Shown here piece after piece: positions 40,040 to 63,965 of a DNA stretch of 64,000 nucleotides. Under the pieces are notes generated by a model. It ran no database searches and was not told the DNA's origin. It saw only the letters and a program-made list of their open reading frames with translations. The stretch covers positions 124,001 through 188,000 of the forward strand of contig NZ_FQVP01000006.1 of the NCBI RefSeq assembly GCF_900129395.1, given 5' to 3'. The DNA is from Pseudosulfitobacter pseudonitzschiae. GTDB lineage: Bacteria; Pseudomonadota; Alphaproteobacteria; Rhodobacterales; Rhodobacteraceae. Each line of letters begins with the position of its first letter. Position 1 is the stretch's first letter. The position numbers and the translations under genes are program-made.

Positions 40040-41551
40040 TCAGACCTTCTGGCTGCGACCTGTCAAAGATTGTCGTGTCCCCTGATAGATGAACCAGCCG
40101 ATGATCATGAAGGTGATGACCATGATCACACCCGAGATGGGCCGCGTGATGAAGGTCGAAACCTCACCGTTTGCCACCACAAGAGCCCGGCGGAAGTTTT
40201 CTTCCATCATCGGCCCAAGAACAAACCCAAGCAACAAGGGCGCGACTTCGAAATTCAACGCTTTCATACCCCACCCGAGAAAGCCGAAACCCAGCAGGAC
40301 AAACAGGTCCATCACCTGATAGTTCACGCTGTAAATGCCGATGCAGACAAAGGCGACGATCACCGGGAAAAGCAGGTTGTAGGGGATCGACAAAATTCGC
40401 ACCCAAAGCCCGATCAAAGGCAGATTGAGGATCAAGAGGAATATGTTGCCGATGATAAAGCTGACGATCAGCCCCCAGAAGAGATCGGGAGAGTCCGTGA
40501 TAACGCTTGGCCCGGGCAGAATGCCATGCACCATCATCACACCCAACATGATCGCCATTACCGGATCACCGGGAATCCCGAGGCTGAGCGTCGGGATAAA
40601 GGCCGCCTGCACAGCGGCATTGTTGGCAGCCTCTGGCGCTGCGACCCCTTCGATTGCACCTTTGCCGAATTCCTCCGGCTGACGGCTTAACTTTTTCTCA
40701 GCGGCATAAGAGATGAACGTGGCCACGACGCCGCCGGTGCCGGGCAACGCGCCAAAGAACGCACCAATGCTGGACCCGCGCAACATCGGCATACCGGACC
40801 TGCGCCACTGGTGGCGCGACGGCAGCATGGACCTGAACGAAATATCCTTGGAATTGACGCTGCTTTTTACCGTGCGCCCTGCATTTGCGATGATCTCCGG
40901 CAAGCCGAACAGCCCAATGGCCACGGCAACCAAAGGCAGCCCGTCGTAAAATTCGGTAACGCCAAAGGTAAACCGTGCGGCGCCGCTGTTCAGATCCAGG
41001 CCAACCAACCCAAGTGCAAGCCCCAGGGTCACGGCGGCAAGCGAACGGACCGATTTGCCGGACCCGACCAAAGAGGCGGCGATCAGGCCCAGGAACATCA
41101 GCGAGAAATATTCTTGCGGACCGAATTGCAACGCCACGCGCGCAAGCGGGGCAGAGAACAGCGACAAGAGGACAACGCCGAACAACGACCCGACACAGGA
41201 TGCGATGGCTGTGATGAACAACGCAACGCCGGCCTGTCCCTTTTGGGCCATCGGATAGCCGTCCAGGCCAGTCACCGCGCTTGTCGCAGTGCCGGGCAGG
41301 TTCAGCAAGATTGACGCCGTCGAGCCGCCGTAGGCCGCGCCATAGTAGATACCCGCCAGCATGATCAGCGCAAAATTGGGCTCGACATGAAAGGTGATCG
41401 GCAAAAGCATGGCAAGCGTCGCCATGGTTCCGATCCCTGGCAGCACGCCAACCAGCGTCCCCAGTGTGACACCCAAAAGACAATAGCCGAGCCCGCCAAG
41501 CGACGCCGCGACCCCAAAGCCCAGCGAGAGGTTGCTGAAAAGATCACCCAT
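40040..41551 (-). CDS. tctA: Tripartite tricarboxylate transporter, large membrane subunit
   Basis: 503 residues with 10-12 membrane segments. The GxxxGxxPGxG-type segment GTLVGVLPGIGTMA near the N-terminus and GALPGTGGVVATFISYAAEK near the middle are the two repeated signatures of TctA. It forms the secondary transporter channel and works with TctB and the periplasmic TctC. Its start overlaps the tctB stop (TAATG). The tctC gene lies 7.9 kb away on the opposite strand, and the dehydrogenase operon separates them. Substrate is a carboxylate. Confidence 0.9.
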   Translation of the reverse strand: MGDLFSNLSLGFGVAASLGGLGYCLLGVTLGTLVGVLPGIGTMATLAMLLPITFHVEPNFALIMLAGIYYGAAYGGSTASILLNLPGTATSAVTGLDGYPMAQKGQAGVALFITAIASCVGSLFGVVLLSLFSAPLARVALQFGPQEYFSLMFLGLIAASLVGSGKSVRSLAAVTLGLALGLVGLDLNSGAARFTFGVTEFYDGLPLVAVAIGLFGLPEIIANAGRTVKSSVNSKDISFRSMLPSRHQWRRSGMPMLRGSSIGAFFGALPGTGGVVATFISYAAEKKLSRQPEEFGKGAIEGVAAPEAANNAAVQAAFIPTLSLGIPGDPVMAIMLGVMMVHGILPGPSVITDSPDLFWGLIVSFIIGNIFLLILNLPLIGLWVRILSIPYNLLFPVIVAFVCIGIYSVNYQVMDLFVLLGFGFLGWGMKALNFEVAPLLLGFVLGPMMEENFRRALVVANGEVSTFITRPISGVIMVITFMIIGWFIYQGTRQSLTGRSQKV

Positions 41552-42012
41552 TATCCGAATGCCTTGATCTGAAGCCCGAGGGCAAAACTAAAGATAAACC
41601 AGCACACCGCCGCCGTTCCAAAGGCAAGGATCACGGCGACGCCCAGCTTTGTGTTGCGATTGGCAAGTGCGGACAGAAAAACCGCGACCGTCACCGATGG
41701 CACAAGGCCGACCCGCTCAATCATCAGGGCAAAGGCAAGAAACGCCGCGGTGACCAGAAAGACCCCGCGCCGGTCGGCAATGGCCGGCGGAAGACCGTCG
41801 TCTTTCCGGGGATCGGGTTTCGACAAAAGGATCAAGCCCGCACCCAGCAGGCACATCAAGACAGCCAGCAGCATTGGGAAATATCCCGGCCCCATGCTGC
41901 GCAATGTCCCAACCCGATAGCCCACCGCCTCCACGAGGATGAACACCCCAAGACCTGCCGTGACAAGTCCCGCAATCAAGTCTTCTCTTCTGTCTATGAG
42001 CGACTTCAACAT
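41551..42012 (-). CDS. tctB: Tripartite tricarboxylate transporter, small membrane subunit
   Basis: 153 residues from the ATG at 42012 (GGGGAGGGC upstream); the longer frame is not needed. Four predicted helices (LIAGLVTAGLGVFILVEAVG, FPMLLAVLMCLLGAGLILL and two more) fit the TctB family. It follows the double-domain SDR gene by 84 bp on the same strand, so it probably belongs to the long operon or has a promoter in that gap. Confidence 0.85.
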   Translation of the reverse strand: MLKSLIDRREDLIAGLVTAGLGVFILVEAVGYRVGTLRSMGPGYFPMLLAVLMCLLGAGLILLSKPDPRKDDGLPPAIADRRGVFLVTAAFLAFALMIERVGLVPSVTVAVFLSALANRNTKLGVAVILAFGTAAVCWFIFSFALGLQIKAFG

Positions 42013-42096
42013 ATGCCCTCCCCGACCCAAAGGTCGCTTGTTTGTACCTGCACTGCACCAGCTCTCCCCGCACGGCAGCATGAACCCGGTGTTGTC

Positions 42097-43377: not shown

Positions 43378-44130
43378 TTAAAGGTTCGAGGTGCCGATGC
43401 CGCCGTCGACCAGCAGCACCTGACCGGTGACAAAGTCGCTTTCTGCAGCAGAAAGATACATGATCGCGCGGGCGATATCGTCGACCGTGCCCAACCGGCC
43501 AAGCGGTGTATGGGCAATGCGTTTGGCATCCAGGTCGGCGTTGCGGTGCTTTTGCGTGCCCTCGGTCGGGACGGCGGACGGGGCCACGGCATTTACCCGA
43601 ATGTTGCTGGCCCCAAGCTCGGCCGCCGCAGCGCGGGTCATGCCCATGACGCCTGCTTTCAGACCGCTGTACACCAGCGAGCGCGGCGCAGAGCGGAAAC
43701 CGGCGGCAGAGGCGACGTTCACGATGGCCCCGCCACGGGTTTTGTCCATCACTTCGACCGCAGCCTGAATGCCCCAGATGATGCTGTTAAACCCAATCTG
43801 CACCATGCGGTCGACCGTTTCCGGCGCAATGTCGGGAATGGCCTGATAGCGCACCCACGCCGCGTTGTTCACCAGAACATCAAGTTGCCCGGCGGCCTCC
43901 ATGACCTGATCCACGGCAGCGCGGACACCTTCGCGGCTGCCGACGTTTTGCACGACGGGTATCGCCATGCCACCTTCGGCGGTGATTTCTGCAACGGCCT
44001 CTTCGACGAATTCAGCTTTCAGGTCATTGATCGCGACGGTCCAGCCGCGCGCAGCCATGAGTTTGGCTGTTGCCTTGCCGATGCCATGCCCGGCCCCGGT
44101 GATCAGTGCGACGGTTTTATCAGCTTGCAC
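43378..44130 (-). CDS. SDR-family oxidoreductase (NNAAW variant)
   Basis: 250 residues from a GTG at 44130, supported by AAGGAG 8 nt upstream; the longer reading frame overlaps the acyl-CoA dehydrogenase gene. TGAGHGIG binds the cofactor; the usual NNAG reads NNAA followed by W; YSGLK has Tyr and Lys. It is notably similar to the SDR at 62168-62926 (shared NNA-x-W-x-RY, RM...GF, IWG-x-QA). It likely acts on a hydroxyacyl-CoA or cyclic alcohol in the same pathway type. Confidence 0.82.
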   Translation of the reverse strand: MQADKTVALITGAGHGIGKATAKLMAARGWTVAINDLKAEFVEEAVAEITAEGGMAIPVVQNVGSREGVRAAVDQVMEAAGQLDVLVNNAAWVRYQAIPDIAPETVDRMVQIGFNSIIWGIQAAVEVMDKTRGGAIVNVASAAGFRSAPRSLVYSGLKAGVMGMTRAAAAELGASNIRVNAVAPSAVPTEGTQKHRNADLDAKRIAHTPLGRLGTVDDIARAIMYLSAAESDFVTGQVLLVDGGIGTSNL

Positions 44131-45124
44131 GTTGCAGCTCCTTTTTGATGTTGTCTCCCGACAAAAGTTGCTGCGCAACAGAGTCCAGAAGCTCGGCCGC
44201 CTTGCCCTGTGCGGCAAGCGTGCGCACGAACCGCAGATGACGGTGCAGCGGCACGTCCCATGTGTATCCCATGCCGCCGAATATCTGGATCGCAGTCTCG
44301 GCTGTCTTGGCGCCAAGACCTGTGGCCCCGATGAATGTTGCGCGTGCGGCGTCAACGGGCATTTCGCAGTGGGGAGAAAGACTGCGGGCGATCGAGTTGC
44401 GGATCGTCTCGACGGCCAGGCACTGTCGGGCAAGATGGTGCTGGATCGCCTGATATGACACCAGCGTTTTGCCAAACTGCCGCCGGTCCTGCGCGTATTC
44501 ACAGGCACGCTCAAGGCTGTCTTCCGCCGCGCCCAGGATCAACGCGGATCGCAGAATTTGCGCAATGCGCTGCAATTCCGTCACCGTTTCCGCGCTCAAT
44601 TCAGGGCCTTCGGCGGCGGTGATGACAACACGCGCCTCGGGCCGCTCCAGGTCAAGGGTATCTTCCGCCATCACCTCGGCGCCCGCGCCCAAGGTGACCA
44701 GAATTGCCGAGCCATCGCGTCGAAAGACCAGAACCGCATCACAGTCCTCGGCCAGCGGAGCGCGGTCTACTGTCCCTGCCGCACCGTCCAGTTCACCGTT
44801 CCATGCGATCGTGACCTTCGTGTGCCCTATCGCGATGGCCGTGGCCAGATCGTCCTGGGTGCCGCTGAAGGCCCGCGCCAAAAGCATTGTCTCAAGCAAG
44901 GGTGCGGCCAGCATTCCGGCCCCAGCGGCATGAAGAACAGGCACGGCAAAGTCGACGGGCAGCCCCATACCACCACAGCTGTCGCCGGCCAGGATACCGG
45001 TCAGCCCCGCATCTGCCAAAAGCGCGATCCTGTCGGCGGTGGTGCCCGCCTCGGCACAGGCGTTCACCACGGCCTTGGCTGTATCGGCAAAATCCTCGGG
45101 GGAAAGATCATATTCGGTGGTCAT
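44120..45124 (-). CDS. Acyl-CoA dehydrogenase, short subunit
   Basis: 334 residues, shorter than the usual 380-400. CEYAQDRRQFGKTLVSYQAI is the conserved Arg/FAD segment and IFGGMGYTWDVPLHRHLR the C-terminal signature. The N-terminal domain is diverged. It is 3 nt from a full-length dehydrogenase gene, the arrangement of heteromeric acyl-CoA dehydrogenases (alpha2beta2, as in sterol and bile-acid side-chain catabolism). It probably supplies one half of the active site; see the neighbour. Confidence 0.82.
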   Translation of the reverse strand: MTTEYDLSPEDFADTAKAVVNACAEAGTTADRIALLADAGLTGILAGDSCGGMGLPVDFAVPVLHAAGAGMLAAPLLETMLLARAFSGTQDDLATAIAIGHTKVTIAWNGELDGAAGTVDRAPLAEDCDAVLVFRRDGSAILVTLGAGAEVMAEDTLDLERPEARVVITAAEGPELSAETVTELQRIAQILRSALILGAAEDSLERACEYAQDRRQFGKTLVSYQAIQHHLARQCLAVETIRNSIARSLSPHCEMPVDAARATFIGATGLGAKTAETAIQIFGGMGYTWDVPLHRHLRFVRTLAAQGKAAELLDSVAQQLLSGDNIKKELQRAS

Positions 45125-45127: not shown

Positions 45128-46321
45128 TTATCTCTCCCAGTTCAGTTTCAGGATCCGCTTTGCAATGATGCCCAGCTGGATTTCGGTCGTGCCCGCATAG
45201 ATCGTTTCGGCGCGCGCCTTGATATAAATGTCTTCCATCCGCCGCTTCACAGCCCGCAAGGGGTCGGACAAATCGGGCGGAAAACGCGAAACGATGTCCA
45301 GGGCAAGCTTGGAAAAATCCTGATGCGCCTCGCTCCAGAACATCTTGGGCAGCGATCCACGGGGCCCGATTTCATTACCGTCGATCAGGGACCCGACCAA
45401 TGTTTCAACGTGCCCTTTAAGCAATTCGATGTTCACCGCCACTTCGGCAAGCGGGCGGGCATAGTCATGTTCGACCAGCCTGCGTGTCGCCGGGTTTTCG
45501 GCACAGGCCGACACCAGGTGCTGTAACTGGTTTTCAAACCGCCAGGCGCGGTGCATCCGGTTGGTGGCACGTTCAATCGACAACACCCGCGTCGCTGCAG
45601 CCCAACCCTGATCGGGCGAGCCGAGCATATCCGCCTCGGGCACGACAACATCATTAAAGAACACTTCACAGAAATGCCGCGCACCGTCGATTGACTTGAT
45701 CTCGCGGATGTCCACGCCCGGCAGGCTGGTGTCCACGGCGAACAGAACAAGCCCGCGGTGACGATCTTCAACCGACCCGGTACGCGCCAGCAACAGGCAG
45801 TGGCTGGATTTGGACGCGCCCGAGGTCCAGATTTTCTGACCGTTGATCACCCAGCCATCATCGGTTTTTTCGGCCTTGGTGCGCAGACCCGCAAGGTCGG
45901 ACCCGGCGTTGGGTTCGGAGAACCCCTGACACCAGATGTTGCGCATCTCGAGGATGGCAGGCAGGTACTCTGCCTTTTGCCGCTCGTTGCCAACGGCCAG
46001 AATGATCGGCCCCGCCAGCTCCTTGCCAATCGAATTGACACTTTCGGGCATTGGCGTGCGGCCAATTTCCCGGCTGATATCCAGATGAGCCCTCAGTCCC
46101 AGATCACCACCGCCGTATTGCGTGGGCCAAGTGGCGCCGATGATACCCGCCTTGTGCAGCTTTGATTCCCATTCGGACAACTCGGCGAAAGTGGGCTCGC
46201 GTTCTTGCAGGATATCCTCGCGCAGGCCCTGCGGAAGGTTCGCGTCCAGCCAGGCGCGGGCCGTGTCACCGGCAGTTTCAAGGGAGGGCCGTTCGCTGGC
46301 CACGGCGGCGGTCTGTGTCAT
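45128..46321 (-). CDS. Acyl-CoA dehydrogenase, full-length subunit
   Basis: 397 residues. ATWPTQYGGGDLGLRAHLDI, CQGFSEPNAGSDLAGLRT and VINGQKIWTSGA are typical. The C-terminal signature reads YAGTTEIQ; the position of the usual catalytic Glu (YEGTxEIQ) is A376, so the base may come from elsewhere or from the partner subunit. It starts in an ATGA overlap with the acyl-CoA ligase gene and forms a pair with the short dehydrogenase encoded downstream. It should desaturate a branched or cyclic acyl-CoA. Confidence 0.87.
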   Translation of the reverse strand: MTQTAAVASERPSLETAGDTARAWLDANLPQGLREDILQEREPTFAELSEWESKLHKAGIIGATWPTQYGGGDLGLRAHLDISREIGRTPMPESVNSIGKELAGPIILAVGNERQKAEYLPAILEMRNIWCQGFSEPNAGSDLAGLRTKAEKTDDGWVINGQKIWTSGASKSSHCLLLARTGSVEDRHRGLVLFAVDTSLPGVDIREIKSIDGARHFCEVFFNDVVVPEADMLGSPDQGWAAATRVLSIERATNRMHRAWRFENQLQHLVSACAENPATRRLVEHDYARPLAEVAVNIELLKGHVETLVGSLIDGNEIGPRGSLPKMFWSEAHQDFSKLALDIVSRFPPDLSDPLRAVKRRMEDIYIKARAETIYAGTTEIQLGIIAKRILKLNWER

Positions 46322-48459
46322 TCAGCGGCCTCTGATGTTTGGGTCTGGTGCGGGATGATCAGCGCGTCAAGCGCGATTGCGCCCAGCCCCTGATCCCGCA
46401 CGAGAAGTGGATTGATATCGATTTCTGCGACGTCATCAGCATGACGCGCGGCAAATTCGGACAGGGCGACAATGGCCTGCGCTGCGGCGTCCACGTCGGC
46501 ACGGGGCCGTCCCCGCGCACCATCAAGCAGCGCAAAACACTTAAGCGATCGCAGCATTTCCTGCGCATCCTCCAGCGAGACAGGTGCCGGTTGCAGGGCG
46601 GTGTCCCGGAACACTTCGGCAAAGATGCCGCCGAGTCCGACCATGACCACCGGTCCAAAGATCGGGTCGGTGGTCGTGCCAACGATCAATTCGGTGCCCC
46701 CTGTGATCATTGGCGCAACCAACACGCCGTCGATCCGGGCATCAGGCGCATGTGTGGCCGCGGCGGTCATGATCCGGGCATAGGCCGCGGCCGCATCGTC
46801 CGCGCCGACAATGCCAAGCTCTACGCCGCCTATGTCGGATTTGTGCTGGATGTCCGCCGACAGTATTTTCATCGCCACGGGCAACGCCAGCCGATCTGCG
46901 GCCTGTCCCGCTGCATCCGCCGATGTCACGACGACCTCCTCGGGAAAGCCTATTCCGGCTGCCGAGAGGACACGTTTGGCATCTGCTTCTGTGGCAACGG
47001 ACCCGCGATCCAGAGGGGCGGTTGCTATGTCCCGCGCGCCACCCGCGTCTTTGCCCTTTTCCGCCGTCAGACGCCCCAGGTGCGACACCCCTTCCATCAT
47101 CGCGTCAATGGTCGGAAAGGTCAGAATGCCCTTGGCGTTCAGGATCTGAAGCGCATCGTCCGGCCCTGCGACACAGGCCACAAAGACCTGATCGGGGTGG
47201 GCCGCACGCGCCGCATCCAAGGCCGCCAGATAGGTGTCGCGCAGGCGAGGCACCTCGAGTCCCAGCGCCATCATGATGCAAACGACTTCATTCGCATTAT
47301 CGCCGGCGACTGCCGACAACAACGCGCCGAAGGTTTCGGGGTTGGCCGACATCTGTGCCGTGGCGTCCACAGGATTCACAGCCGAAGCCAGCGGCAGCAC
47401 TGCCTTGATCTGTTCGATCGCGGCGTCGCCGGTCCGGTTCAGGGTCAGGCCATGTTCTTCCGCCGCGTCCGCCATCATGATGCCAAAGCCGCCGGATGCC
47501 GCGATGACCGACACCGATGGGTTCGCGCTGACCGTCCGGTCTCCTAGGGCGGCGGCGGCGCTGCCCATCTGGACCAACATCTCAAGCGACTTGACGCGCA
47601 CTGCCCCATGTCTGGCAAAGACCGCGTCAAACACCTGGTCCGCACCGGCCAGCCCACCGGTATGCGACATGGCTGCAGCCTTGCCGACGTCCGAGGCGCC
47701 CATCTTCAGCACGAACACGGGTTTGCCAGCAGCCCGCGCGATATCCAGCGCAAGCGTCAGACGAGCGGCATCCCGACAGGTTTCCATACAGACCAGAATG
47801 ACACGGGTCGCAGCGTCGCCCGCCATCCACGCGATGGCATCGGCAATATCCACGTCGCATTCATTGCCAGATGCGATAAAGCGGCTGATCCCCGCCCCAC
47901 CGCGCCCCAGCATTTTCATGGCAAGGCTGCCCACGTTGCCGCTTTGCGATACAATCGCAACCGGACCTTGCGCGGGCATTTCATTTTCCAGTGCGACCGA
48001 GAATGTCCCAATCGCCTTTTCCGGGACACTGACCGTGCCAAGGCAGTTTGGCCCCAGTACCCGCATCCCGCTGTTGTCAGCAATCGCCCGCAATTCGAGT
48101 TGCCGCGCGGCGCCCTCGCTGCCTTGCTCGGCAAATCCGGCGGACAGCACGATCGCGGCGGGCACACCACGTTCGGCACAGGCGCGTGCCGCTTCCAGCG
48201 CACCGGCGCCCGGTACCGCGATCAGCGCCAGGTCCGGGACCTGCGGCAGGTCCGCAACGCTGGCATAGGCGGTCAGACCCTGAACCTCGTCCGCCTTGGG
48301 ATTGACCGGCAGGATTGCCCCGGCATAGCCGTGTTTCTTCAGCAGATGGACAGGTCGCCCGCCCGTTTTGGACGGGTCTGTCGATGCCCCGATAACAGCA
48401 ATCGACCGGGGCTGGAAAATCTGGTCCAACCCCCGACCAAGGTTGATGTCACGCGCCAT
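46318..48459 (-). CDS. ADP-forming acyl-CoA ligase family protein (CoA-binding plus ATP-grasp)
   Basis: 713 residues from the ATG at 48459. The order is CoA-binding domain (IAVIGASTDPSKTGGRPVH), succinyl-CoA-ligase-like domain with H266 in AMSHTGGLAGAD as the phospho-His, and a C-terminal ATP-grasp domain (DIGGVELGIVGADDAAAA, VVMVGLGGIFAEVFRD, INPLLVRD). It activates a carboxylic acid to its CoA thioester with ATP. It would activate the acid taken up by TctABC. A close paralogue (57831-59948) serves the next cluster. Confidence 0.88.
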   Translation of the reverse strand: MARDINLGRGLDQIFQPRSIAVIGASTDPSKTGGRPVHLLKKHGYAGAILPVNPKADEVQGLTAYASVADLPQVPDLALIAVPGAGALEAARACAERGVPAAIVLSAGFAEQGSEGAARQLELRAIADNSGMRVLGPNCLGTVSVPEKAIGTFSVALENEMPAQGPVAIVSQSGNVGSLAMKMLGRGGAGISRFIASGNECDVDIADAIAWMAGDAATRVILVCMETCRDAARLTLALDIARAAGKPVFVLKMGASDVGKAAAMSHTGGLAGADQVFDAVFARHGAVRVKSLEMLVQMGSAAAALGDRTVSANPSVSVIAASGGFGIMMADAAEEHGLTLNRTGDAAIEQIKAVLPLASAVNPVDATAQMSANPETFGALLSAVAGDNANEVVCIMMALGLEVPRLRDTYLAALDAARAAHPDQVFVACVAGPDDALQILNAKGILTFPTIDAMMEGVSHLGRLTAEKGKDAGGARDIATAPLDRGSVATEADAKRVLSAAGIGFPEEVVVTSADAAGQAADRLALPVAMKILSADIQHKSDIGGVELGIVGADDAAAAYARIMTAAATHAPDARIDGVLVAPMITGGTELIVGTTTDPIFGPVVMVGLGGIFAEVFRDTALQPAPVSLEDAQEMLRSLKCFALLDGARGRPRADVDAAAQAIVALSEFAARHADDVAEIDINPLLVRDQGLGAIALDALIIPHQTQTSEAAE

Positions 48460-48460: not shown

Positions 48461-49231
48461 TCAGCGCCCCGTGAACTTCGGTTCGCGTTTTTCCAGAAAT
48501 GCCATGCGGGCCTCTTTCGCGTCTTCGGTCTGGGCCAGCGCCATCGTATAGTTCTGTTCCATCCGGTAGGCATCGCGCTGCGGCATGTGCTCGACGATGG
48601 TCATCGCCTGTTTGGCATAGCGAATGGCCAGCGGGCTTTTCGACGCGATCTCGCGGGCGACGGCCATGGCGGTCGGCACAAGGTCTTCCTGGGACGTGAC
48701 GGCCTCGATGACATTGCGCTCAAGCAACTCGGCAGCCGTCAGGCGCACACCGGTGTAGAACATGCGGCGCATCGTGGAGCGGCCAAACAACGTGTTCAAC
48801 ATGGATGCACCGCCCGCCAGACCGACATTGATCTCTGGCATGCCAAAGGTCGCGTTTTCAGAGGCATAGAAGACGTCACAGGACGCCATCAGCCCCAGCC
48901 CCGCACCCAGGGCCGCGCCGTTCACTGCGGCGATGACGGGTTTGGAACATTCGCGGATCGCATTGCCTGTCTCGCGGGTGATCCGGTTGTGCTCGAGAAA
49001 ATCTCCGGGAACTTCGGCGTCGGGGCGATCCTTCAGGTCCGCTCCGGCGCAAAACGTTTTTCCCGCACCGGTCAGAACGGCACAGCGAATATCTTCGCGG
49101 GCAGAAATCTCGTCGAACACCGCGATGATTTCGGCACGCGCCTTGCGGTTGAGGGCATTCACGGGCGGGCGATTCAAGGTGACCAATGCAACGTGGTCAA
49201 CGATTTCAAATCGCAGGGTTTCATAAGTCAT
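48461..49231 (-). CDS. Enoyl-CoA hydratase family protein
   Basis: 256 residues. AVLTGAGKTFCAGADLKD and AAVNGAALGAGLGLMASCDV form the oxyanion hole; MPEINVGLAGGASML is the second catalytic segment. In GAGLGLMA the position that is Glu in hydratases (GGGxELA) is Gly, as in isomerases and other crotonases, while E of MPE is kept. So it may be an isomerase, or a hydratase using one Glu. First gene of the operon; its promoter lies in the TetR-box gap. Confidence 0.83.
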   Translation of the reverse strand: MTYETLRFEIVDHVALVTLNRPPVNALNRKARAEIIAVFDEISAREDIRCAVLTGAGKTFCAGADLKDRPDAEVPGDFLEHNRITRETGNAIRECSKPVIAAVNGAALGAGLGLMASCDVFYASENATFGMPEINVGLAGGASMLNTLFGRSTMRRMFYTGVRLTAAELLERNVIEAVTSQEDLVPTAMAVAREIASKSPLAIRYAKQAMTIVEHMPQRDAYRMEQNYTMALAQTEDAKEARMAFLEKREPKFTGR

Positions 49232-49280: not shown

Positions 49281-49329
49281 CCCGTAACTAGCACCGGCCC
49301 CCGGTACTGACAACAGGAAAATTGCGGAT

Positions 49330-54042: not shown

Positions 54043-54861
54043 ATGCGGATCGTGGTCAAACAGAACACGCCCCCGCGTCTGGAGGCACCCGAGGATTTCA
54101 CGCGGTTTTCCATCGCATTGGATGAACGGCTGCAAGGGACCGAAGCCCTGGCCCTCGCGCCGGTCGCGGATTTCAAATCAGAGGAGGGCACCCATGCATG
54201 GGTGCGCCCCGACGCCATCAGGGCCCTGTCCGCGATGGCAGGCGATCCCGAATGGGACGCAGGCTTTGCCGCGATGTGCGCCTTTGCCAGGGAACATGGC
54301 TGGATCGGACCAAACGGCGGTATCCGCGCCCATATCGACTATCTTCCCGAAACGTGCCCCGTAAGCGCGGATGAGTTTCGCCGCGCCATGCGCAAATTTG
54401 CAAGCGGCGTCTGCATCGTGGCCAGCGGCAAAGGCGCAGACCGGCGCGGCATGACGGTTTCCGCCTTCTCGTCGGTGTCCGCCGAACCGCCGATGGTTCT
54501 TGTCTGCCTCAACCGGACCTCGTCGACCCATGACGCGATCATTTCCGCCGATGCCTTCAGCGTGAATATCCTTGGCGGATCACAAGAGGACGTGGCCATG
54601 CGCTTTGCCGGCCAAGGCGGGTTGCGCGGTGCCGACCGGTTTACCGATGACGCATGGCAAGACGCCGAAGGCGGCGCGCCGGTTCTGGCCACGTCGCACC
54701 AGTCGCTGGTTTGTACGCCTGTGTCGTCGCATCAGGCCGGGACGCACACCGTGTTGATCGGTCAGGTCATTGCGACCGGCGACACCCAGGACAGTTCCGC
54801 GCTGGTCAATTACGACGGCGTGATCAAGGCCACGACGGCGCAGCCAAGCGCCATCCAATAG
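54043..54861 (+). CDS. Flavin reductase with unusual N-terminal extension
   Basis: 272 residues. From about residue 113 it is a typical flavin_reduct domain (EFRRAMRKFASGVCIVAS, GMTVSAFSSVSAEPPMVLVC, DAFSVNILGGSQEDVAMRFA, HTVLIGQVIATG). The first ~110 residues (DFTRFSIALDERLQGTEALA, GTHAWVRPDAIRALSAMAGD, AMCAFAREHGWIGPNGGIRA) are not part of the usual 160-residue reductase and I do not recognise them. They may dock the partner oxygenase. It supplies reduced flavin to the monooxygenase encoded upstream. Confidence 0.83.
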   Translation: MRIVVKQNTPPRLEAPEDFTRFSIALDERLQGTEALALAPVADFKSEEGTHAWVRPDAIRALSAMAGDPEWDAGFAAMCAFAREHGWIGPNGGIRAHIDYLPETCPVSADEFRRAMRKFASGVCIVASGKGADRRGMTVSAFSSVSAEPPMVLVCLNRTSSTHDAIISADAFSVNILGGSQEDVAMRFAGQGGLRGADRFTDDAWQDAEGGAPVLATSHQSLVCTPVSSHQAGTHTVLIGQVIATGDTQDSSALVNYDGVIKATTAQPSAIQ

Positions 54862-56753: not shown

Positions 56754-57275
56754 CTATTCGGGCGCCACGCGGCGGAAAAATCCGTCGCGGTACAGCAATG
56801 CACTGTCTTCTGTACAGGCAACCGCAACGACGCGACCGAACAGGACCTCGTGTGCGCCGCAGGTCATGGATTTTTCCAGCACACAGTCAAAGCTGCTCAG
56901 GGCGTCCGGCAGCACCGGTGCGCCGGTGACAAATTTTGTCCATGTACCGGCACCCATCCGTGTTTCGCCGGTCAACCCCCGCGTGGAGAACGCCCGCGCC
57001 AGGCTTGAGTGCGCGTCGCTCAGGAAATTGACCGCGAATATCCCCGAACTCTGGATCAGGTGCAGCGCGCTTGCCTTGCGGTTCACACAGACCAGGATCG
57101 TCGGGGGCATGGTCGTGGCGGAACAGATCGCGGTCGCCGTCAGCCCGTCGCGCTCGGTCTGTGTTTGCGTGGTCACCACGGCGACCGAGGACACCACGCG
57201 CCGCATGGCATGTTTGTATTCCGCAGGCGACACGGTGTCCGTGTCCGGCGGATTCGACATAGGTTCTGGCGTCAT
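56754..57275 (-). CDS. Flavin reductase family protein
   Basis: 173 residues from the ATG at 57275 (AAGGGCAGG upstream; 57260 is possible). MRRVVSSVAVVTTQTQTERDGLTATAICS, PPTILVCVNRKASALH, GIFAVNFLSD and SFDCVLEKSMTCGAHEVLFG form a complete flavin_reduct domain. It would supply reduced FMN to an oxygenase. The type I BVMO reduces its own flavin, so this one may serve the LLM monooxygenase of the adjacent operon or another enzyme. Confidence 0.85.
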   Translation of the reverse strand: MTPEPMSNPPDTDTVSPAEYKHAMRRVVSSVAVVTTQTQTERDGLTATAICSATTMPPTILVCVNRKASALHLIQSSGIFAVNFLSDAHSSLARAFSTRGLTGETRMGAGTWTKFVTGAPVLPDALSSFDCVLEKSMTCGAHEVLFGRVVAVACTEDSALLYRDGFFRRVAPE

Positions 57276-57303: not shown

Positions 57304-57834
57304 TCAATTCCCCGCGTCCGCAGCGATGTGATAGACGGGATCGTCCGGGTATGACCCGCCAATCGGGGTCCGTGGGCCAAACCGGTCCTGCTCGCTTTGC
57401 GCGGGCGGCTCCTGGGGTGCGACCCAGTCGTAGACAACCGTGCGCCGCAGCACGCGCCATTCCTGGCCGCGCTTTTCGAACAGGTCGCAGTACCGGCCGC
57501 ACAACTGGACCTGTCGCTCTACGCCATCTGGTCCGGTGCCACGCTGGAACGCAATGAAATAGGTTTCCACGTCCGCACGCGTATCCGAGGTAAATTCGAC
57601 CATGATATTGCCGACATTGTGGATATTGCGCGGCCCGGTTGCCCAGACCTTGCGCACCTGTTCGATGAAACCCGATACCGGCCCCGAATAGGCGCCATGA
57701 CTGTCATGCGCGTCGGGCCAGTATGAGGACACAAGCGCCGCTTCGTCAGCGCGGTCAATCCCGCGACAATAGCGATGGATGCAGTCGCGTATCGCATCCT
57801 TGTCCAGCAGCGCACGTAGGGCAGCATCTGTCAT
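57304..57834 (-). CDS. NTF2-like (SnoaL_4-type) protein
   Basis: 176 residues. DKDAIRDCIHRYCRGIDRAD, HNVGNIMVEFTSDTRADVET and YFIAFQRGT fit the SnoaL-like family often found in aromatic and terpenoid degradation clusters, with the cone-shaped pocket. Its stop lies 28 nt before the flavin reductase start, and its start overlaps the ligase gene end by 4 nt. Possible role: hydrolase, dehydratase or isomerase on a hydrophobic substrate. Activity unproven. Confidence 0.78.
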   Translation of the reverse strand: MTDAALRALLDKDAIRDCIHRYCRGIDRADEAALVSSYWPDAHDSHGAYSGPVSGFIEQVRKVWATGPRNIHNVGNIMVEFTSDTRADVETYFIAFQRGTGPDGVERQVQLCGRYCDLFEKRGQEWRVLRRTVVYDWVAPQEPPAQSEQDRFGPRTPIGGSYPDDPVYHIAADAGN

Positions 57835-59948
57835 GAGGGTTCCCCTTCCTTGAGTTCAATCAGCGCATCCAATGCGATCACACCCTGCCCCCGTGGCATC
57901 ACCCGAACGGGGTTCAGGTCAATTCCGGCGATACGGCTCCGGTTGGCGGCGGCAAACATCGACACCTGGGACAGCAACTGTGCCAGCGCATCGACATCGG
58001 CAGGCGGCGCGCCCCGCACCCCTTCAAGCAGCGCATGGCCCTTGATCTCGCGGATCATGCGGTGGGCCTCTGAGATCCCGAAAGGCGCCACGCGAAAGGT
58101 CACATCCTTCAGAACTTCGACGAATACCCCGCCAAGCCCGAACATGACCACCGGACCAAAGGACGGGTCATCATGGACGCCGACAATGGTTTCGACGCCG
58201 CCCGACAGCATGGCCGAAACCAGGACACCTTCGATCTCGGCATCTGGGGCGGCCTTGCGCACCCTGTCCAACATCTCGTCCGTGGCCTGCCGGACCGCGG
58301 CCGCATCCGTCAGGTTCAGGACGACACCCCCGATCTCTGTCTTATGCGCGATGTCTGGCGAGCAGATTTTCAGCACAACCGGGAACCCGATCCGGGTCGC
58401 TTCCTGCGCCGCCTCGGACCCGGTCCGCACCAGCGCCTCGTCCGCGAACCGCACACCTGCGGTGCGCAACACGGTTTTGGCGGTGGCTTCGCTCATACGG
58501 CCCTGGGGCAGGTCCATAGGCGTTCCGGGTGTGGGCTGCGGGTCATTGCGGGCGAATGCGTCGGCAAATGCGGCCAGCGCACCAAAGGATTTGGCCAGCG
58601 CCCCGCCGTCCTCGTAGACCAGAAAACCATCGGCCTCATAGTCAGCCACCACGGTGCGCGGTGCGGACATGGTCAGGCCGCGAATAGACCTGTCATGCCC
58701 CGCGAACCCCGCCATCAACGCCTCGCGCAGAGGTTTTGAGAAACTCTCCGACGCAGGCCCGGTTCCAAGGATGGCGCTGAACATATCATAGCCCCCCTTG
58801 TCCATCATCGACTGAACAAAGGCTGTCAGGATGCTCATGTCGCTGACGGCCTGTGCCGTGGCATCAACGGGATTGACCGGCGACGCATAGGGCAACAGGG
58901 CCTTCAACTCGGCCTGTGCGGCATCGGGCATCGGGGCCACATCCAGACCCGCCGCGGTGAAGTCATCCGCAAGCTGGATGCCAAATCCACCGGACATCGT
59001 GAAAATTCCGGCCTTGTTCCCCACGGGGAACACCCCGCCCGCAGCGGCATAGGCAATGTCGATCTGCTCTGCGGTCGTCATCGCACGATAGGCACCATAT
59101 TGGCGCAGAACCGCATCAAACACGTCGTCCGACCCGGCAAGCGACGCCGTGTGCGACGCAGCCGCGCGCGCGCCGACTTCGGTCCGGCCCGTTTTCATGA
59201 AGACAACAGCCTTGTTTGCCGCGCGCGCCCGCTCAAGCGCGGCGCGGAAACGGTCGCCATTTCCGATCCCTTCGGCATAGGCCATGACCACGCGCGTTTC
59301 AGGCTGGGCCACAACATGGTCCAACGCTTCGGCCAGCGAGATGTCCATCTCGTTGCCCGTGGTGATCCATTGGCTGATGCCCAGGCCCCGCGCCCGCACA
59401 AGGTGCGCGATATGCGAGCCATAGGCCCCGCTTTGCGACACGATGCCCACCGGACCGGGGGCCAGAAATTCTCCGTCCAGCACCACGGAAAACGTACCGT
59501 AATACCCCAACGCGGGGTTCATGACCCCAAGGCAGTTCGGACCCAGCAACCGCATCCCACCCGCGCGTGCCACAGCGGCGATTTCGGCCTGAAGGGCTTC
59601 GCCCTCTGCGCCCGCTTCGGAAAACCCTGCTGAAAAGACGATGGCCGAGGGGATGCCCTTTTCCACACATTCGGTCACCGCCGCCAGCGTCACCGCCGCA
59701 GGCACGGCCAGGATGGCGGTATCGGGCACTTCGGGCAGATCAAGCACGCTGGCATAGGCTTTCAGACCCTGAACCGTCTCGCGCTTTGGATTGACCGGAT
59801 AGATCTTCCCGGCGAACCCCGCCTCGCGCATATAGCGCAATGGACGCCCGCCAATGCGTTTCACGTCATCAGAGGCACCAATGACGGCCACACTGCGTGG
59901 CGAAATCAGCGATTGCAGGCTCTGGCGCTCCATACTCACCTTATCCAT
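57831..59948 (-). CDS. ADP-forming acyl-CoA ligase family protein
   Basis: 705 residues from the ATG at 59948 (MERQS at 59933 with AAGGTGAG is an alternative). CoA-binding domain (VAVIGASDDVKRIGGRP), succinyl-CoA-ligase-like domain with H266 in AASHTASLAGSD, and ATP-grasp domain (VVMFGLGGVFVEVLKDV, INP-like DLNPVRVMPRG). Paralogue of the ligase at 46318-48459, with conserved blocks such as VPDxAxxAVP and GMRxLGPNCLG. It activates the carboxylic acid released by the lactonase or an imported one. Confidence 0.87.
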   Translation of the reverse strand: MDKVSMERQSLQSLISPRSVAVIGASDDVKRIGGRPLRYMREAGFAGKIYPVNPKRETVQGLKAYASVLDLPEVPDTAILAVPAAVTLAAVTECVEKGIPSAIVFSAGFSEAGAEGEALQAEIAAVARAGGMRLLGPNCLGVMNPALGYYGTFSVVLDGEFLAPGPVGIVSQSGAYGSHIAHLVRARGLGISQWITTGNEMDISLAEALDHVVAQPETRVVMAYAEGIGNGDRFRAALERARAANKAVVFMKTGRTEVGARAAASHTASLAGSDDVFDAVLRQYGAYRAMTTAEQIDIAYAAAGGVFPVGNKAGIFTMSGGFGIQLADDFTAAGLDVAPMPDAAQAELKALLPYASPVNPVDATAQAVSDMSILTAFVQSMMDKGGYDMFSAILGTGPASESFSKPLREALMAGFAGHDRSIRGLTMSAPRTVVADYEADGFLVYEDGGALAKSFGALAAFADAFARNDPQPTPGTPMDLPQGRMSEATAKTVLRTAGVRFADEALVRTGSEAAQEATRIGFPVVLKICSPDIAHKTEIGGVVLNLTDAAAVRQATDEMLDRVRKAAPDAEIEGVLVSAMLSGGVETIVGVHDDPSFGPVVMFGLGGVFVEVLKDVTFRVAPFGISEAHRMIREIKGHALLEGVRGAPPADVDALAQLLSQVSMFAAANRSRIAGIDLNPVRVMPRGQGVIALDALIELKEGEPS

Positions 59949-60831
59949 TTTGACCAAACCTCGGCTCTGTGCGTCCGGTGACGCCCAGCCCTTCGAGGGC
60001 AAAAAGATATCCACCGTGGGGATGGCGTGACACGGCACGTCCGGTCCCGGAATCCTTGATGGATGTCATGAACAGGGTCGACATGTCCGGCCCGCCAAAG
60101 GTGATGCAGCTGGGCATATCGACGGGGGCGTCGATCAGGCGGTCCAGCGTGCCGTCCGGCGCAAATCGCCCGATTTTTCCCGCCTGGACCAAAGCGACCC
60201 AGATGAAACCTTCGGAATCGACCGTCGCGCCGTCGGGGCCGGAATTGTAATCCTTGGTGTTCACCAGAATGCGCGGTTCGGTCAGCGGTTCGGGTTCGGC
60301 CGCGTAGTGATAGGCGCGGATCTGTCGGTCCAGGCTGTCGGCAAAATACAAGGTGCCGCCGTCCGGACTGAAACAGACCGAATTCGAGATGCGGATACCA
60401 TTGGCAAGGCACTCTTTCGTCTTGTCCGCCGAGATGCGCACAAGCTCGGCAACCGGTTCGGCAAAAACGCCCATGGTCCCACAGACAAAGCGGCCCTGAT
60501 GGTCCACCTTGCCGTCATTGAAACGCACCCGCGCATCAACGGGATCGGGCCGGTACAAGGGCTCAAGAGCAGCGGTTTCCAGTGTGACAATATAAATCCC
60601 GTCAGCCAAGCCGACGACCAGCTTTCCCTGGTCCATGGTCAATGCGATCGACCCGATCATCGAGGGCATTTCCACCGACCCGAACTGGTCCTCTGCATAG
60701 TCAAGGAACCGGATCAAACGCTTGACCCCATCGACCCAGTAAAGACGTCCGATCCGGTCATCCCAGATCGGGCTTTCCCCGAGTTGGTCGGGTGAAGGCG
60801 CAATGCGCGTGGCTGTAACAGTAAGAATCAT
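59941..60831 (-). CDS. SMP-30/gluconolactonase-type lactonase
   Basis: 296 residues from the ATG at 60831. GESPIWDDRIGRLYWVDGV starts the beta-propeller; the metal ligands are the Glu of GESP and polar residues of VRFNDGKVDHQGRF, RISNSVCFSPDG and NSGPDGATVDSEG. It hydrolyses lactones to hydroxy acids. Between a BVMO and a CoA ligase it would open the lactone product. It lies downstream of a strong terminator that separates it from the binding-protein gene. Confidence 0.85.
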   Translation of the reverse strand: MILTVTATRIAPSPDQLGESPIWDDRIGRLYWVDGVKRLIRFLDYAEDQFGSVEMPSMIGSIALTMDQGKLVVGLADGIYIVTLETAALEPLYRPDPVDARVRFNDGKVDHQGRFVCGTMGVFAEPVAELVRISADKTKECLANGIRISNSVCFSPDGGTLYFADSLDRQIRAYHYAAEPEPLTEPRILVNTKDYNSGPDGATVDSEGFIWVALVQAGKIGRFAPDGTLDRLIDAPVDMPSCITFGGPDMSTLFMTSIKDSGTGRAVSRHPHGGYLFALEGLGVTGRTEPRFGQNG

Positions 60832-60879: not shown

Positions 60880-60885
60880 GTTGGA

Positions 60886-62167: not shown

Positions 62168-62926
62168 TCAGGAAAAGGCGTAGGTTATTCCTCCATCCAC
62201 AAAAATCATGTCGCCAGTGATGAAAGACGCCTCTTCGGACGCCAGAAACACCGCTGCATTCGCCATATCGGCAGGTTGCCCCAGACGTCGGATCGGAATG
62301 CGCTCGCGCCGCCGTTCCCAACCCTCGTCCGTCACCACGCGCATCGCGCCGTCGGTCTGGGTTGGTCCGGGTGCGATGGCCGTGACCCGGACGTTATCGG
62401 GACCGAATTCCGCGGCACCCGAGCGGGTGGCCGCAGCAACGGCTGCCTTGATCGCGCTGTACATGATGCCGTGTTTCATCGCGAGGACGGCAGAGGGTGA
62501 GGCGATGTTGACGATCGCGCCGCCTCCGGCTTCGCGCATCTGCGGCAGCACCGCCTGATAGCCCCAGATGACCCCCTTGAAGCCGACGTCGATCATCCGG
62601 CCGATCATCGTTTCGTCCTGATCTTCCAGTGGCCCGTACCGGTTCCACATCGCATTGTTGACCAGCAGCGTGACGGGCCCGAATGCCTGCTTCAGCTTTT
62701 CCGCGGCGTCGAACACATCGGCACGCAGCGCCGCATTGCCAACCAGGGCAACGGCCTGTCCGCCGGCCTCTTGAATGGCGGCGACGGTGGCTTCGGCCAA
62801 TTCGGGTTTCAGGTCGAAAACGCCGACGGCGGCACCTTCGCGGGCATAGGCCTCGCAGATGGCCCGCCCGATGCCCAGACCGCCACCGGTCACCAACGCA
62901 ACCTTACCCTCAAGCCGCTTGCTCAT
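62168..62926 (-). CDS. SDR-family oxidoreductase (NNAMW variant)
   Basis: 252 residues from the ATG at 62926 (GGGAGAACTT upstream). TGGGLGIG and YSAIK are intact, but NNAG reads NNAM followed by W. It resembles the SDR at 43378-44130 more than the others (shared NNA-x-W-x-RY, RM...GF, IWG-x-QA, RMVTD-like tail). First gene of the operon, likely oxidising an alcohol to the ketone on which the monooxygenase acts. Confidence 0.83.
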   Translation of the reverse strand: MSKRLEGKVALVTGGGLGIGRAICEAYAREGAAVGVFDLKPELAEATVAAIQEAGGQAVALVGNAALRADVFDAAEKLKQAFGPVTLLVNNAMWNRYGPLEDQDETMIGRMIDVGFKGVIWGYQAVLPQMREAGGGAIVNIASPSAVLAMKHGIMYSAIKAAVAAATRSGAAEFGPDNVRVTAIAPGPTQTDGAMRVVTDEGWERRRERIPIRRLGQPADMANAAVFLASEEASFITGDMIFVDGGITYAFS

Positions 62927-63185
62927 AAGTTCTCCCTTCAGGACCTCTGCCCCGGCACAGGTGGCCCTGCTGCCGGTGATCCAGACATTGTTTGATCTGA
63001 TGTCGCGCAGCGCCCCCTGCGGGGCTGCGCACGACGCATTCTCCTTCGGCGGTGCGCGCATTTTGCGGATATGCAGCCGGCCGATTTCCCGCCCCCAGTC
63101 TCACATGCCGCGTTGAACAGGGCCACGAATATTGATATATGGAGTTTAAATTCACATTCTTGAAAAACGGCCAAGGAGAGACACC
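62927..63185. promoter_or_regulatory. Divergent regulatory gap SDR/IclR
   Basis: The longest intergenic region of the window. It contains a GC-rich hairpin GCGCAG-CG-CCCC / GGGG-CTGCGC (63005-63030) and an AT-rich patch (63128-63165) with TTGATA and TATATGG-like promoter elements. An IclR operator is likely in the AT-rich patch, but no clear palindrome could be fixed. The hairpin lies in the SDR leader. Confidence 0.45.
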
Positions 63186-63965
63186 GTGAGCGAGACCAAG
63201 GTAAAATCGGCGGCGCGGGCGTTCGAGGTGCTTGAATACTTCCGCATCGGACGGCAGCCGCGTTCGATGTCCGAGATTGCCACCGGTCTGGACTATCCCC
63301 TGTCCAGCACGACAGTCCTGCTCAAGACATTGGTTAAGCTGGGTTATCTGAACTATGACCGGCGCGCGCGCGTGTATTTCCCGACGACCAAGGTCACCGG
63401 ACTGGGGGAGTGGATCCCCAAGACGCTGTTCGGGTCGGGGCAGATCATCGACGCGCTGAACGATCTGCACGCCGAAACCGGCGAGGGCATTTTCATCGGT
63501 GCCAAGAACGATATCTATCTTCAGTATATCCAGACTCGCGCGTCCATTCAGGCGCTGCGGTTCCACATCGAAGAGGGCACGATCCGGCCGATCACCAAAT
63601 CGGTTGCCGGTCTGGTTCTGCTGGCGACCCTGCCCATGGACAAGCTGGAAAACACCGTGCGGCGTGCCAACATCGCAACGCCCAAGGTCGCGGACCGAGT
63701 GAAGCTTAAAGACATCTCCGAGCAGATCGAACAGATCCGGCAGCAGGGCTATGGCTATGTCGAGGATATGCCCTTTGAAGGGGGCGCCACCCTGGCGATG
63801 CTGCTGCCGGTGCTGGTTCAGGGACAACCGATCACCCTGGCGCTTGGCGGTGTGGCCGAGCGGTTCAGACGCAACCGCGACCAGTATCTCAGCGCATTGC
63901 GAAAGGCCGTCCGATCTGTTCGCACAGACCCGGATTTCAACAACCCGGTTCAGATCGAACTGTGA
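63186..63965 (+). CDS. IclR-family transcriptional regulator
   Basis: 259 residues from a GTG with AAGGAGAG 6 nt upstream. The N-terminal HTH (SAARAFEVLEYFRIGRQPRS...LSSTTVLLKTLVKLGYLNYD) and the C-terminal effector domain (TGEGIFIGAKNDIYLQYIQT, SVAGLVLLATLPMDK, EQIRQQGYGYVEDMPFEGGA) are typical. It likely regulates the divergent seven-gene operon in response to an aromatic or carboxylic intermediate. Confidence 0.88.
   Translation: MSETKVKSAARAFEVLEYFRIGRQPRSMSEIATGLDYPLSSTTVLLKTLVKLGYLNYDRRARVYFPTTKVTGLGEWIPKTLFGSGQIIDALNDLHAETGEGIFIGAKNDIYLQYIQTRASIQALRFHIEEGTIRPITKSVAGLVLLATLPMDKLENTVRRANIATPKVADRVKLKDISEQIEQIRQQGYGYVEDMPFEGGATLAMLLPVLVQGQPITLALGGVAERFRRNRDQYLSALRKAVRSVRTDPDFNNPVQIEL

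What the first reader, a model, noticed from the sequence alone, without database searches (positions are those of the whole stretch)
40040..63965. Candidate new catabolic island: paralogous acid-activation clusters with BVMO, lactonase and LLM monooxygenase
Clusters A and B share paralogous SDRs (NNA-x-W variants) and ADP-forming acyl-CoA ligases. Cluster B has alcohol dehydrogenase, BVMO, lactonase and ligase in one operon; A has dehydrogenases and crotonase with a carboxylate importer. Together they resemble the logic of camphor/cyclic ketone catabolism (type II and type I BVMO plus CoA ligase) but with no P450, so a new route is possible.
Basis: inference. Interest (0 to 1): 0.8.

Follow-up and report, generated by a model that had tools for sequence, protein, structure and literature searches.

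The report
Twin ring-opening catabolic modules on plasmid
A marine bacterium's plasmid carries two parallel gene sets that probably open ring-shaped ketones and burn the pieces, and two of their proteins have close relatives in an unexplained operon that sits beside the nitrogen-fixation genes of several rhizobia.

Summary
The window lies on a ~250 kb Pseudosulfitobacter plasmid with two paralogous catabolic modules. Module B (FAD BVMO homologue, flavin reductase, NTF2-fold protein, ADP-forming acyl-CoA ligase, SMP-30 protein, binding protein, SDR) runs past the window into a Liv-type importer, two acyl-CoA dehydrogenases, a hydratase and an AMP-forming ligase. Its genes recur around this BVMO clade: 43 of 46 full-flank loci keep at least one of eight partners, 0 of 5 outgroup loci. 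In seven BVMO loci the same NTF2-SDR order ends in the BVMO instead, so LLM and BVMO seem to fill one slot. Most likely mechanism: cyclic ketone to lactone to hydroxy acid to CoA ester to beta-oxidation. Substrate and activity are untested; the BVMO lacks the textbook fingerprint histidine.

The parts
40040..41551 (-). Module A: TctA, tripartite tricarboxylate transporter
   Evidence: PF01970 E 2.8e-156; RefSeq
41551..42081 (-). Module A: TctB
   Evidence: PF07331
42097..43368 (-). Module A: SDR with extra C-terminal part (423 aa); distant relative of the two-domain SDR of rhizobial and BVMO loci
   Evidence: PF13561; 34-38% to rhizobial SDRs over the first domain
43378..44130 (-). Module A: SDR, NNAAW motif, paralogue of module B SDR
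44120..45124 (-). Module A: small acyl-CoA dehydrogenase-like protein (only the C-terminal domain scores)
   Evidence: PF00441, PF08028
45128..46321 (-). Module A: large acyl-CoA dehydrogenase, best NCBIfam hit PimC, below its cut-off
46318..48459 (-). Module A: ADP-forming acyl-CoA ligase (CoA_binding_2, Succ_CoA_lig, ATP-grasp_5)
   Evidence: start from RefSeq
48461..49231 (-). Module A: enoyl-CoA hydratase/isomerase, PRK06495 subfamily
   Evidence: NF005073 392.8 bits, cut-off 296
49329..50402 (+). Module A: TctC substrate-binding protein
   Evidence: PF03401
50461..51243 (+). Module A: SDR
   Evidence: PF13561; start from RefSeq
51240..51737 (-). TetR regulator
   Evidence: RefSeq start
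51918..52850 (-). LysR regulator, divergent from the LLM
   Evidence: neighbour of the LLM in L010, L012, L014, L015, L021, L022, L126, L127, L132, L139, L140
52959..54038 (+). Module A oxygenase: luciferase-like (LLM) flavin-dependent monooxygenase
   Evidence: PF00296; relatives on 111 plasmids, 88 at 60% identity or more, 23 below
54043..54861 (+). Module A: flavin reductase partner of the LLM
   Evidence: PF01613
54986..56617 (-). Module B oxygenase: type I BVMO homologue, fingerprint His replaced by Arg169
   Evidence: PAMO E 4.2e-173
56754..57275 (-). Module B: flavin reductase
   Evidence: PF01613; RefSeq start
57304..57834 (-). Module B: NTF2/SnoaL_4 protein with the LinA-type Asp27-His72 pair
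57831..59948 (-). Module B: ADP-forming acyl-CoA ligase
   Evidence: RefSeq start
59941..60831 (-). Module B: SMP-30/gluconolactonase, four metal ligands kept
   Evidence: PF08450
60886..62106 (-). Module B: periplasmic binding protein of the Liv-type ABC importer
   Evidence: PF13458
62168..62926 (-). Module B: SDR, NNAMW motif
63186..63965 (+). IclR regulator
   Evidence: PF09339, PF01614
63988..64000 (-). Start of the rest of the module B gene run beyond the window: LivM, LivH, LivF, LivG, ACAD, ECH, ACAD, AMP-forming ligase (L007)

Best explanation
Two plasmid-borne catabolic modules run the same chemistry with different first enzymes. An imported cyclic ketone or alcohol, probably already bearing a carboxylate (module A importer TctABC, module B importer Liv-type ABC), is oxidised to the ketone by an SDR; a flavin monooxygenase inserts oxygen next to the carbonyl (A: FMN-type LLM with its flavin reductase; B: FAD-type BVMO homologue); the SMP-30 protein opens the lactone; the NTF2-fold protein does an acid-base step such as dehydration or isomerisation; ADP- or AMP-forming ligases make the CoA thioester; and paired acyl-CoA dehydrogenases, crotonases and SDRs take it into beta-oxidation. 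NTF2, two-domain SDR and oxygenase form a portable cassette whose oxygenase slot holds a BVMO in catabolic loci and the LLM in a rhizobial operon often found among nif genes. Shown: gene content, conservation, gene order, residue conservation. Inferred: every reaction, the order of steps, and that SMP-30 and BVMO act in sequence. Substrate unknown; a terpenoid-like alicyclic ketone acid is my guess.
Against: No activity or substrate data. The BVMO lacks the canonical fingerprint His (Arg169; in the clade R 39, L 11, H 7, Y 2 of 59). LLM fold and sequence do not single out type II BVMOs, and its model is of moderate confidence (best pLDDT 75.6, the other four models 50-56). Three of 46 full-flank BVMO loci keep none of the eight core partners, 28 lack LivH, and A genes are the exception beside the BVMO (LLM 5, tctA 5, acdA1 6 of 46). 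SMP-30 proteins have other roles (recalled). The window genome has no full two-domain SDR (none of 7 matches spans both domains), so the cassette order is broken in the window itself. Many clade loci come from related genera (Bradyrhizobium, Variovorax), so counts are not independent.
Confidence: 0.6

Rival explanations
1. A and B are two separate catabolic routes for unrelated substrates that sit next to each other by plasmid gene gathering; shared paralogues only reflect generic beta-oxidation toolkits.
For: A alone and B alone both exist; in G121 A and B lie on different contigs of a draft; different importers and regulators; A genes in a minority of BVMO loci.
Against: Co-occurrence in 3 of 394 genomes against 5 with A and 4 with B (hypergeometric 4e-6, or 2e-4 without the window genome; not corrected for relatedness, limits set after seeing the hits); the NTF2 proteins of A-only loci (G182, W027) nest among those of B loci; two or more A genes beside the clade BVMO in 9 of 46 loci in different orders.
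Confidence: 0.25
2. The oxygenases are not Baeyer-Villiger enzymes: the LLM epoxidises or hydroxylates, the NTF2 protein acts on the product (like limonene monooxygenase and epoxide hydrolase, recalled), and the BVMO homologue with Arg169 does other chemistry.
Against: NTF2 keeps the Asp-His pair of LinA-type lyases; whether it has the Asp-Arg-Asp set of limonene epoxide hydrolase (recalled) was not tested. BVMO keeps the GGxWxxxxYPGxxxD motif and the Arg aligned with PAMO's catalytic Arg (roles recalled); a lactonase-type gene recurs beside it (33 of 46).
Confidence: 0.25
3. Detoxification rather than growth: the modules remove an algal or plant defence compound.
For: The matching plasmid's strain came from sea water with bloom algae; rhizobial relatives sit in symbiosis regions.
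Against: Two importers, three CoA ligases and full beta-oxidation sets on the same plasmid point to carbon use.
Confidence: 0.1

Closest known systems
Camphor degradation of Pseudomonas putida (P450cam, ferredoxin, SDR, LLM-type diketocamphane monooxygenase, type I BVMO OTEMO; recalled)
   Same: SDR, LLM oxygenase, flavin reductase, type I BVMO homologue (OTEMO is a PDB hit, E 2.9e-133), CoA ligase, beta-oxidation; six of ten rhizobial loci read add a P450, and the one searched is nearest P450cam/CYP101 in the PDB
   Different: No P450 match on this contig; LLM not closest to diketocamphane monooxygenase; BVMO closer to phenylacetone and steroid monooxygenase; dedicated SMP-30, NTF2 and importers
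Carveol/limonene degradation of Rhodococcus erythropolis DCL14 (SDR, BVMO, lactone hydrolase, CoA ligase; recalled)
   Same: Same logic of alcohol to ketone to lactone to hydroxy acid to CoA ester; an old-yellow-enzyme-type gene in seven related loci fits an enone-to-ketone step
   Different: Lactonase-type gene is SMP-30; ADP-forming ligases; no sequence comparison with those enzymes was made here
Rhizobial operon P450-(ferredoxin)-NTF2-two-domain SDR-LLM (S. fredii NGR234 and CCBAU 45436, R. etli Mim1, S. mexicanum, Mesorhizobium; without P450 in R. tropici CIAT 899)
   Same: LLM 59-62% and NTF2 57-62% identical to the window proteins; SDR 51-60% identical to the two-domain SDR of 13 BVMO loci, 35-44% in seven others
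   Different: No beta-oxidation genes, lactonase or flavin reductase annotated in the stretches read; nif neighbourhood in 6 of 10; the window genome lacks a close P450 and a full two-domain SDR
Phenylacetone monooxygenase (1w4x)
   Same: Query residues 7-535 of 546 aligned, E 4.2e-173
   Different: Fingerprint His is Arg in the window protein
LinA / bile-acid 7-alpha dehydratase / scytalone dehydratase
   Same: Fold and, for LinA, the aligned Asp-His pair
   Different: 13-20% identity in the fold alignments; reaction unknown

Membership tests
Type I Baeyer-Villiger monooxygenase | Full-length homology to characterised BVMOs | tested here: met
   PAMO E 4.2e-173, steroid monooxygenase 4.4e-164, OTEMO 2.9e-133
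Type I Baeyer-Villiger monooxygenase | Fingerprint FxGxxxHxxxW[P/D] (motif recalled) | tested here: not met
   FKGRILRAQKWP: His position is Arg169; clade R 39, L 11, H 7, Y 2 of 59 aligned; 8 outgroup homologues H 4, N 2, S 1, Y 1. So it is called a BVMO homologue, not a proven BVMO
Type I Baeyer-Villiger monooxygenase | Second motif [A/G]GxWxxxx[F/Y]P[G/M]xxxD and active-site Arg (recalled) | tested here: met
   GGVWYWNRYPGARCD; Arg aligned with PAMO TKR
Type I Baeyer-Villiger monooxygenase | Ketone to ester or lactone activity | not testable with these tools
   needs assay
Type II BVMO (diketocamphane type) | LLM fold | tested here: met
Type II BVMO (diketocamphane type) | Partner flavin reductase | tested here: met
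   PF01613 gene 54043-54861 directly downstream
Type II BVMO (diketocamphane type) | Closest to diketocamphane monooxygenase among LLM enzymes | tested here: inconclusive
SMP-30/regucalcin lactonase | PF08450 domain and four metal ligands (ligand roles recalled) | tested here: met
   E 1.8e-74; E, N, N, D in 50 of 50 rows, some rows duplicate records
SMP-30/regucalcin lactonase | Lactonase activity | not testable with these tools
   needs assay
LinA/scytalone dehydratase-like NTF2 lyases | Fold plus catalytic Asp-His pair (roles recalled) | tested here: met
ADP-forming acyl-CoA ligase | CoA_binding_2, Succ_CoA_lig and ATP-grasp_5 in one chain | tested here: met
   both ligases
Camphor-type pathway | P450 with the cluster | tested here: not met
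   0 of 8 P450 matches of the genome on this contig
Rhizobial P450-NTF2-SDR-LLM operon | NTF2, two-domain SDR and LLM in a row with a P450 | tested here: not met
   LLM and NTF2 relatives present but 3.3 kb apart on opposite strands (parts); no full two-domain SDR; best P450 match in the genome 32%

The most novel reading that the evidence does not exclude
NTF2, two-domain SDR and a flavin monooxygenase form a portable ring-oxidation cassette in which a luciferase-type and a BVMO-type oxygenase replace one another without homology. In rhizobia a P450-fed version sits beside nif genes and makes or destroys a terpenoid-like ketone or lactone inside nodules; in marine and soil bacteria the cassette feeds a full catabolic route. 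The catabolic loci would then reveal the substrate class of a symbiosis operon of unknown purpose.
Probability: 0.35. Interest if true: 0.8.

Novelty: new variant of a known kind. Interest (0 to 1): 0.55.

Why it matters
It turns a loose list of oxidoreductases into two defined, recurring modules with a testable reaction order, and ties them to an operon that lies just upstream of nifH in two S. fredii strains and, with one small hypothetical gene between, in R. etli Mim1; a likely counterpart in Mesorhizobium loti is NifA-dependent (PMC3538637, passages). Five paper searches on that operon showed me no assigned function, in listings and passages only. A growth substrate for the marine strain would give a first chemical lead for the symbiosis operon. 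It also exposes a BVMO clade that mostly lacks the textbook fingerprint histidine.

Tried and rejected
Considered and rejected: sugar oxidation (SDR plus gluconolactonase), because CoA ligases, ACADs and crotonases accompany the genes and no sugar-acid dehydratase or aldolase was among the annotated or Pfam-scanned genes of the two modules; aromatic ketone route, because no ring-cleavage dioxygenase was recognised among gene groups recurring in 4 or more BVMO loci (groups were named by homology to window genes and by eye, not all Pfam-scanned); identifying the substrate, not possible from sequence. A sigma-54 promoter scan of the window gave 9 hits against 8.4 expected, so nothing. In rhizobial loci a loose -24/-12-like site with a TGT-N10-ACA site 92-105 bp further upstream was found within 2.5 kb in 3 of 9 (L144, L145, L148), no such -24/-12 site in the other 6.

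Weak points kept in view: one search's first neighbourhood count mixed short and duplicate loci and is superseded, which dropped 2 fragments (L079, L080) and, for the flank test, 18 loci with under 8 kb on a side. The 71 loci come from a scan seeded by six short peptides of the query, which favours close relatives. The fingerprint count covers 59 of 61 clade loci. One search's alignment used a wrong frame for one row and was not used. The class-wide LLM search at E 1e-100 found only the window genome in 385, so the LLM is rare. VIA-align 2 ranks luciferase and F420 enzymes above diketocamphane monooxygenase for the LLM model. NZ_CP140967.1 is the one of 28 records where the listed NTF2 and LLM places lie 63.6 kb apart. 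Microvirga lotononidis shows the NTF2 gene but neither LLM nor two-domain SDR in 16 kb. Five paper searches on the BVMO/lactonase cluster and on Sulfitobacter or rhizobia with Baeyer-Villiger terms and five on the rhizobial operon showed no paper assigning a function; I saw 15 of 41 and 12 of 77 papers listed; subscription journals are mostly not held, and Luyten 2001 (MPMI, symbiosis-specific P450 homologue) was seen only as a reference-list entry.


Full report
What is there. The window is G000:C19:124001-188000. Contig C19 has 250,548 bases; the BVMO is 100% identical to one on plasmid unnamed7 of Pseudosulfitobacter pseudonitzschiae H46 (NZ_CP054606.1, 250,456 bp, circular), whose annotation runs gene by gene like this part of the window and beyond. 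Every gene named in the finding exists. Gene starts given under parts follow RefSeq, mapped by the constant sum of window and plasmid coordinates.

Module B is longer than the window. Past base 64000 the same strand goes on with two Liv-type permeases, two ABC ATPases, an acyl-CoA dehydrogenase, an enoyl-CoA hydratase, a second acyl-CoA dehydrogenase and an AMP-forming ligase (the last two also in the RefSeq listing). The binding protein at 60886-62106 is its natural partner. So B has an importer, two kinds of CoA ligase and its own beta-oxidation genes. A further FadE, thiolase, FadB and acetyl-CoA hydrolase-type set lies at 23895-31288 of the window.

Conservation. One scan of 84,980 species genomes, seeded by six short peptides, gave 71 loci. 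Sixty-one belong to the window's BVMO clade (53% identity or more), 8 are outgroup BVMOs, 2 are fragments. Of the 46 clade loci with at least 8 kb on both sides, SGL is present in 33, NTF2 in 27, binding protein in 27, IclR in 21, LivM in 20, echA-type hydratase in 19, LivH in 18, ligB in 17, acs in 16; module A genes are rarer (acdA2 9, acdA1 6, tctA 5, LLM 5). Forty-three of 46 keep at least one of eight core genes; 3 keep none. Of 5 outgroup loci with such flanks, none keeps any of the 18 genes tested (identity limits chosen). Hosts run from Roseobacters, Bradyrhizobium and sphingomonads to Variovorax, Acidovorax and Hydrogenophaga. On a Comamonas antarctica plasmid the B genes sit together with an ADP-forming ligase, two ACADs, an SDR and a TctC protein. 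In 7 loci an old-yellow-enzyme-type gene, which could reduce an enone to the ketone, lies in the same stretch (placed in five of them; Pfam-checked in L018 and L021); none of the window genome's six such genes is on this contig.

Where the LLM belongs. In G182 and G166 and on plasmids of Sulfitobacter W074 and W027 the LLM and flavin reductase sit with the ACAD pair, ligase, hydratase, SDRs and TctAB, without the clade BVMO near by; G182 and G166 do have distant BVMO homologues (47%) on other contigs. G251 has B and no A. So the LLM is module A's oxygenase and the BVMO is module B's. An SMP-30 gene lies next to tctA in L126, L128, L132 and W027, which gives module A its own lactonase there; in the window that place is taken by a TetR gene. 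W074 and W027 have a gene annotated pcaF near module A, fitting a dicarboxylyl-CoA end product. Among 394 genomes of the family, A (echA at 73% or more) is in 5, the clade BVMO (69% or more) in 4, both in 3 (hypergeometric 4e-6, or 2e-4 leaving out the window genome, without correction for relatedness).

The rhizobial connection. At E up to 1e-40 the LLM finds 111 plasmids: Rhizobium 48, Sinorhizobium 47, Mesorhizobium 8, Variovorax 3, Sulfitobacter 2, one each of three more; 88 at 60% identity or above, 23 below. In the 60 rows listed, identity falls from 49.6% to 34.0% with nothing between. The NTF2 protein finds 129 plasmids with nearly the same genera. In 27 of the 28 records listed in both tables the two genes lie within 3.3 kb. 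I read ten rhizobial LLM loci. Six have a P450 in front: S. mexicanum, R. etli Mim1, S. fredii CCBAU 45436 and NGR234, Mesorhizobium AR02 and M. huakuii (some NTF2 and SDR genes there unannotated but found by homology); a ferredoxin gene is annotated in S. mexicanum, R. etli and AR02. R. tropici and R. ruizarguesonis have NTF2-SDR-LLM without a P450 in the stretch read; two S. meliloti plasmids have NTF2-LLM only. So NTF2-SDR-LLM holds in 8 of 10. Six of ten lie among or next to nif genes: just upstream of nifH in the two S. fredii strains and, with one small hypothetical gene between, in R. etli; within about 10 kb of nif genes in R. tropici, AR02 and M. huakuii. S. mexicanum (next to nodD2), R. 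ruizarguesonis and S. meliloti show none in the stretch read. The S. mexicanum P450, the only one searched, has P450cam and CYP101 enzymes as best PDB matches (up to 217.7 bits; CYP143 189.8), a lead rather than a family assignment, since CYP101 is heavily sampled in the PDB.

Oxygenase swap. The rhizobial two-domain SDR is 51-60% identical to the two-domain SDR of 13 BVMO loci and 35-44% in seven more (L129, a duplicate of L011, left out). In L011, L012, L024, L034, L049, L058 and L076 the order is NTF2-(flavin reductase)-SDR-BVMO on one strand; in 8 of 10 rhizobial loci it is NTF2-SDR-LLM. In the others of the 13, L025, L078 and L134 have NTF2 and SDR together with the BVMO divergent some kilobases away, L039 and L041 have SDR-BVMO with no NTF2 found, and L023 has neither arrangement. 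The LLM tree puts the rhizobial proteins in one clade (100/100) joined with betaproteobacterial ones (84/95), and the NTF2 proteins of LLM-linked, BVMO-free loci (W027, G182) nest among BVMO-linked ones. Two non-homologous oxygenases in one slot with the same neighbours is the best evidence here that they do equivalent reactions.

Literature. PMC3538637 (passages): M. loti R7A msi332-331, a P450 and possible ferredoxin behind a nifQ fragment, has a NifA-type promoter, and msi332::lacZ activity fell from 446.6 to 14.6 units, which I read as the nifA2-mutant column; the paper says the need for such genes remains unknown. That msi332 is the same operon is my inference from the nifQ/prxS-rpoN2 neighbourhood. 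PMC8436566 (passages): in its RNA-seq table for nodule bacteroids, P450 RS32340, NTF2 RS32345, SDR RS32350 and flavin-dependent oxidoreductase RS32355 on pMHb of M. huakuii carry values between -8.6 and -10.2; that these are the L150 genes is inferred from plasmid and order. PMC8197338 (passages): CYP127A3 listed as hydroxylating testosterone; that the rhizobial P450 is CYP127 is recalled. PMC3164228 (passages) cites Luyten 2001 on a symbiosis-specific P450 homologue, which I did not read. PMC8305402, PMC6421345, PMC7273348 and PMC10671737 were searched for terms only and gave nothing decisive. Camphor, limonene and BVMO-motif facts are recalled.

Verdict. Real, recurring and more interesting than a single BVMO operon: two parallel ketone-to-lactone-to-CoA modules, one with an FMN-type and one with an FAD-type oxygenase, whose cassette also appears in a rhizobial operon often placed among nif genes. 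Substrate, reaction order and both oxygenase activities remain inference.

Noticed in passing
plasmid NZ_CP054606.1 200501-250456 (L112) and 34000-83900 (L113): The same plasmid carries a cobalamin biosynthesis block, a cytochrome oxidase and PQQ-dehydrogenase block, hydantoinase/oxoprolinase genes, formate dehydrogenase and a dmdD gene.
   Followed up: no
window 23895-31288: FadE, thiolase, FadB and an acetyl-CoA hydrolase-type gene in a row: a general beta-oxidation set some 9 kb from module A.
   Followed up: partly
L095 10034-12364 (Variovorax PBL-E5 plasmid 3): Beside the BVMO cluster there is one acyl-CoA dehydrogenase gene of about 776 codons where other loci have two genes; it may be a fusion of the pair.
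   Followed up: no
L018-L023, L078: Old-yellow-enzyme-type gene in seven BVMO loci; none of the window genome's six is on its contig.
   Followed up: partly
L014 4119-5315: A thiolase gene lies between the NTF2 gene and the flavin reductase-LLM pair in a deep-water alphaproteobacterial contig.
   Followed up: no
L149 (Rhizobium NXC24 pRspNXC24a): A distant LLM (34%) sits beside a flavin reductase, an SMP-30 gene and an SDR, a further possible oxygenase-lactonase pairing.
   Followed up: no
G000:C18:13600-15159: A second BVMO homologue (43%) in the window's genome, outside the clade.
   Followed up: no
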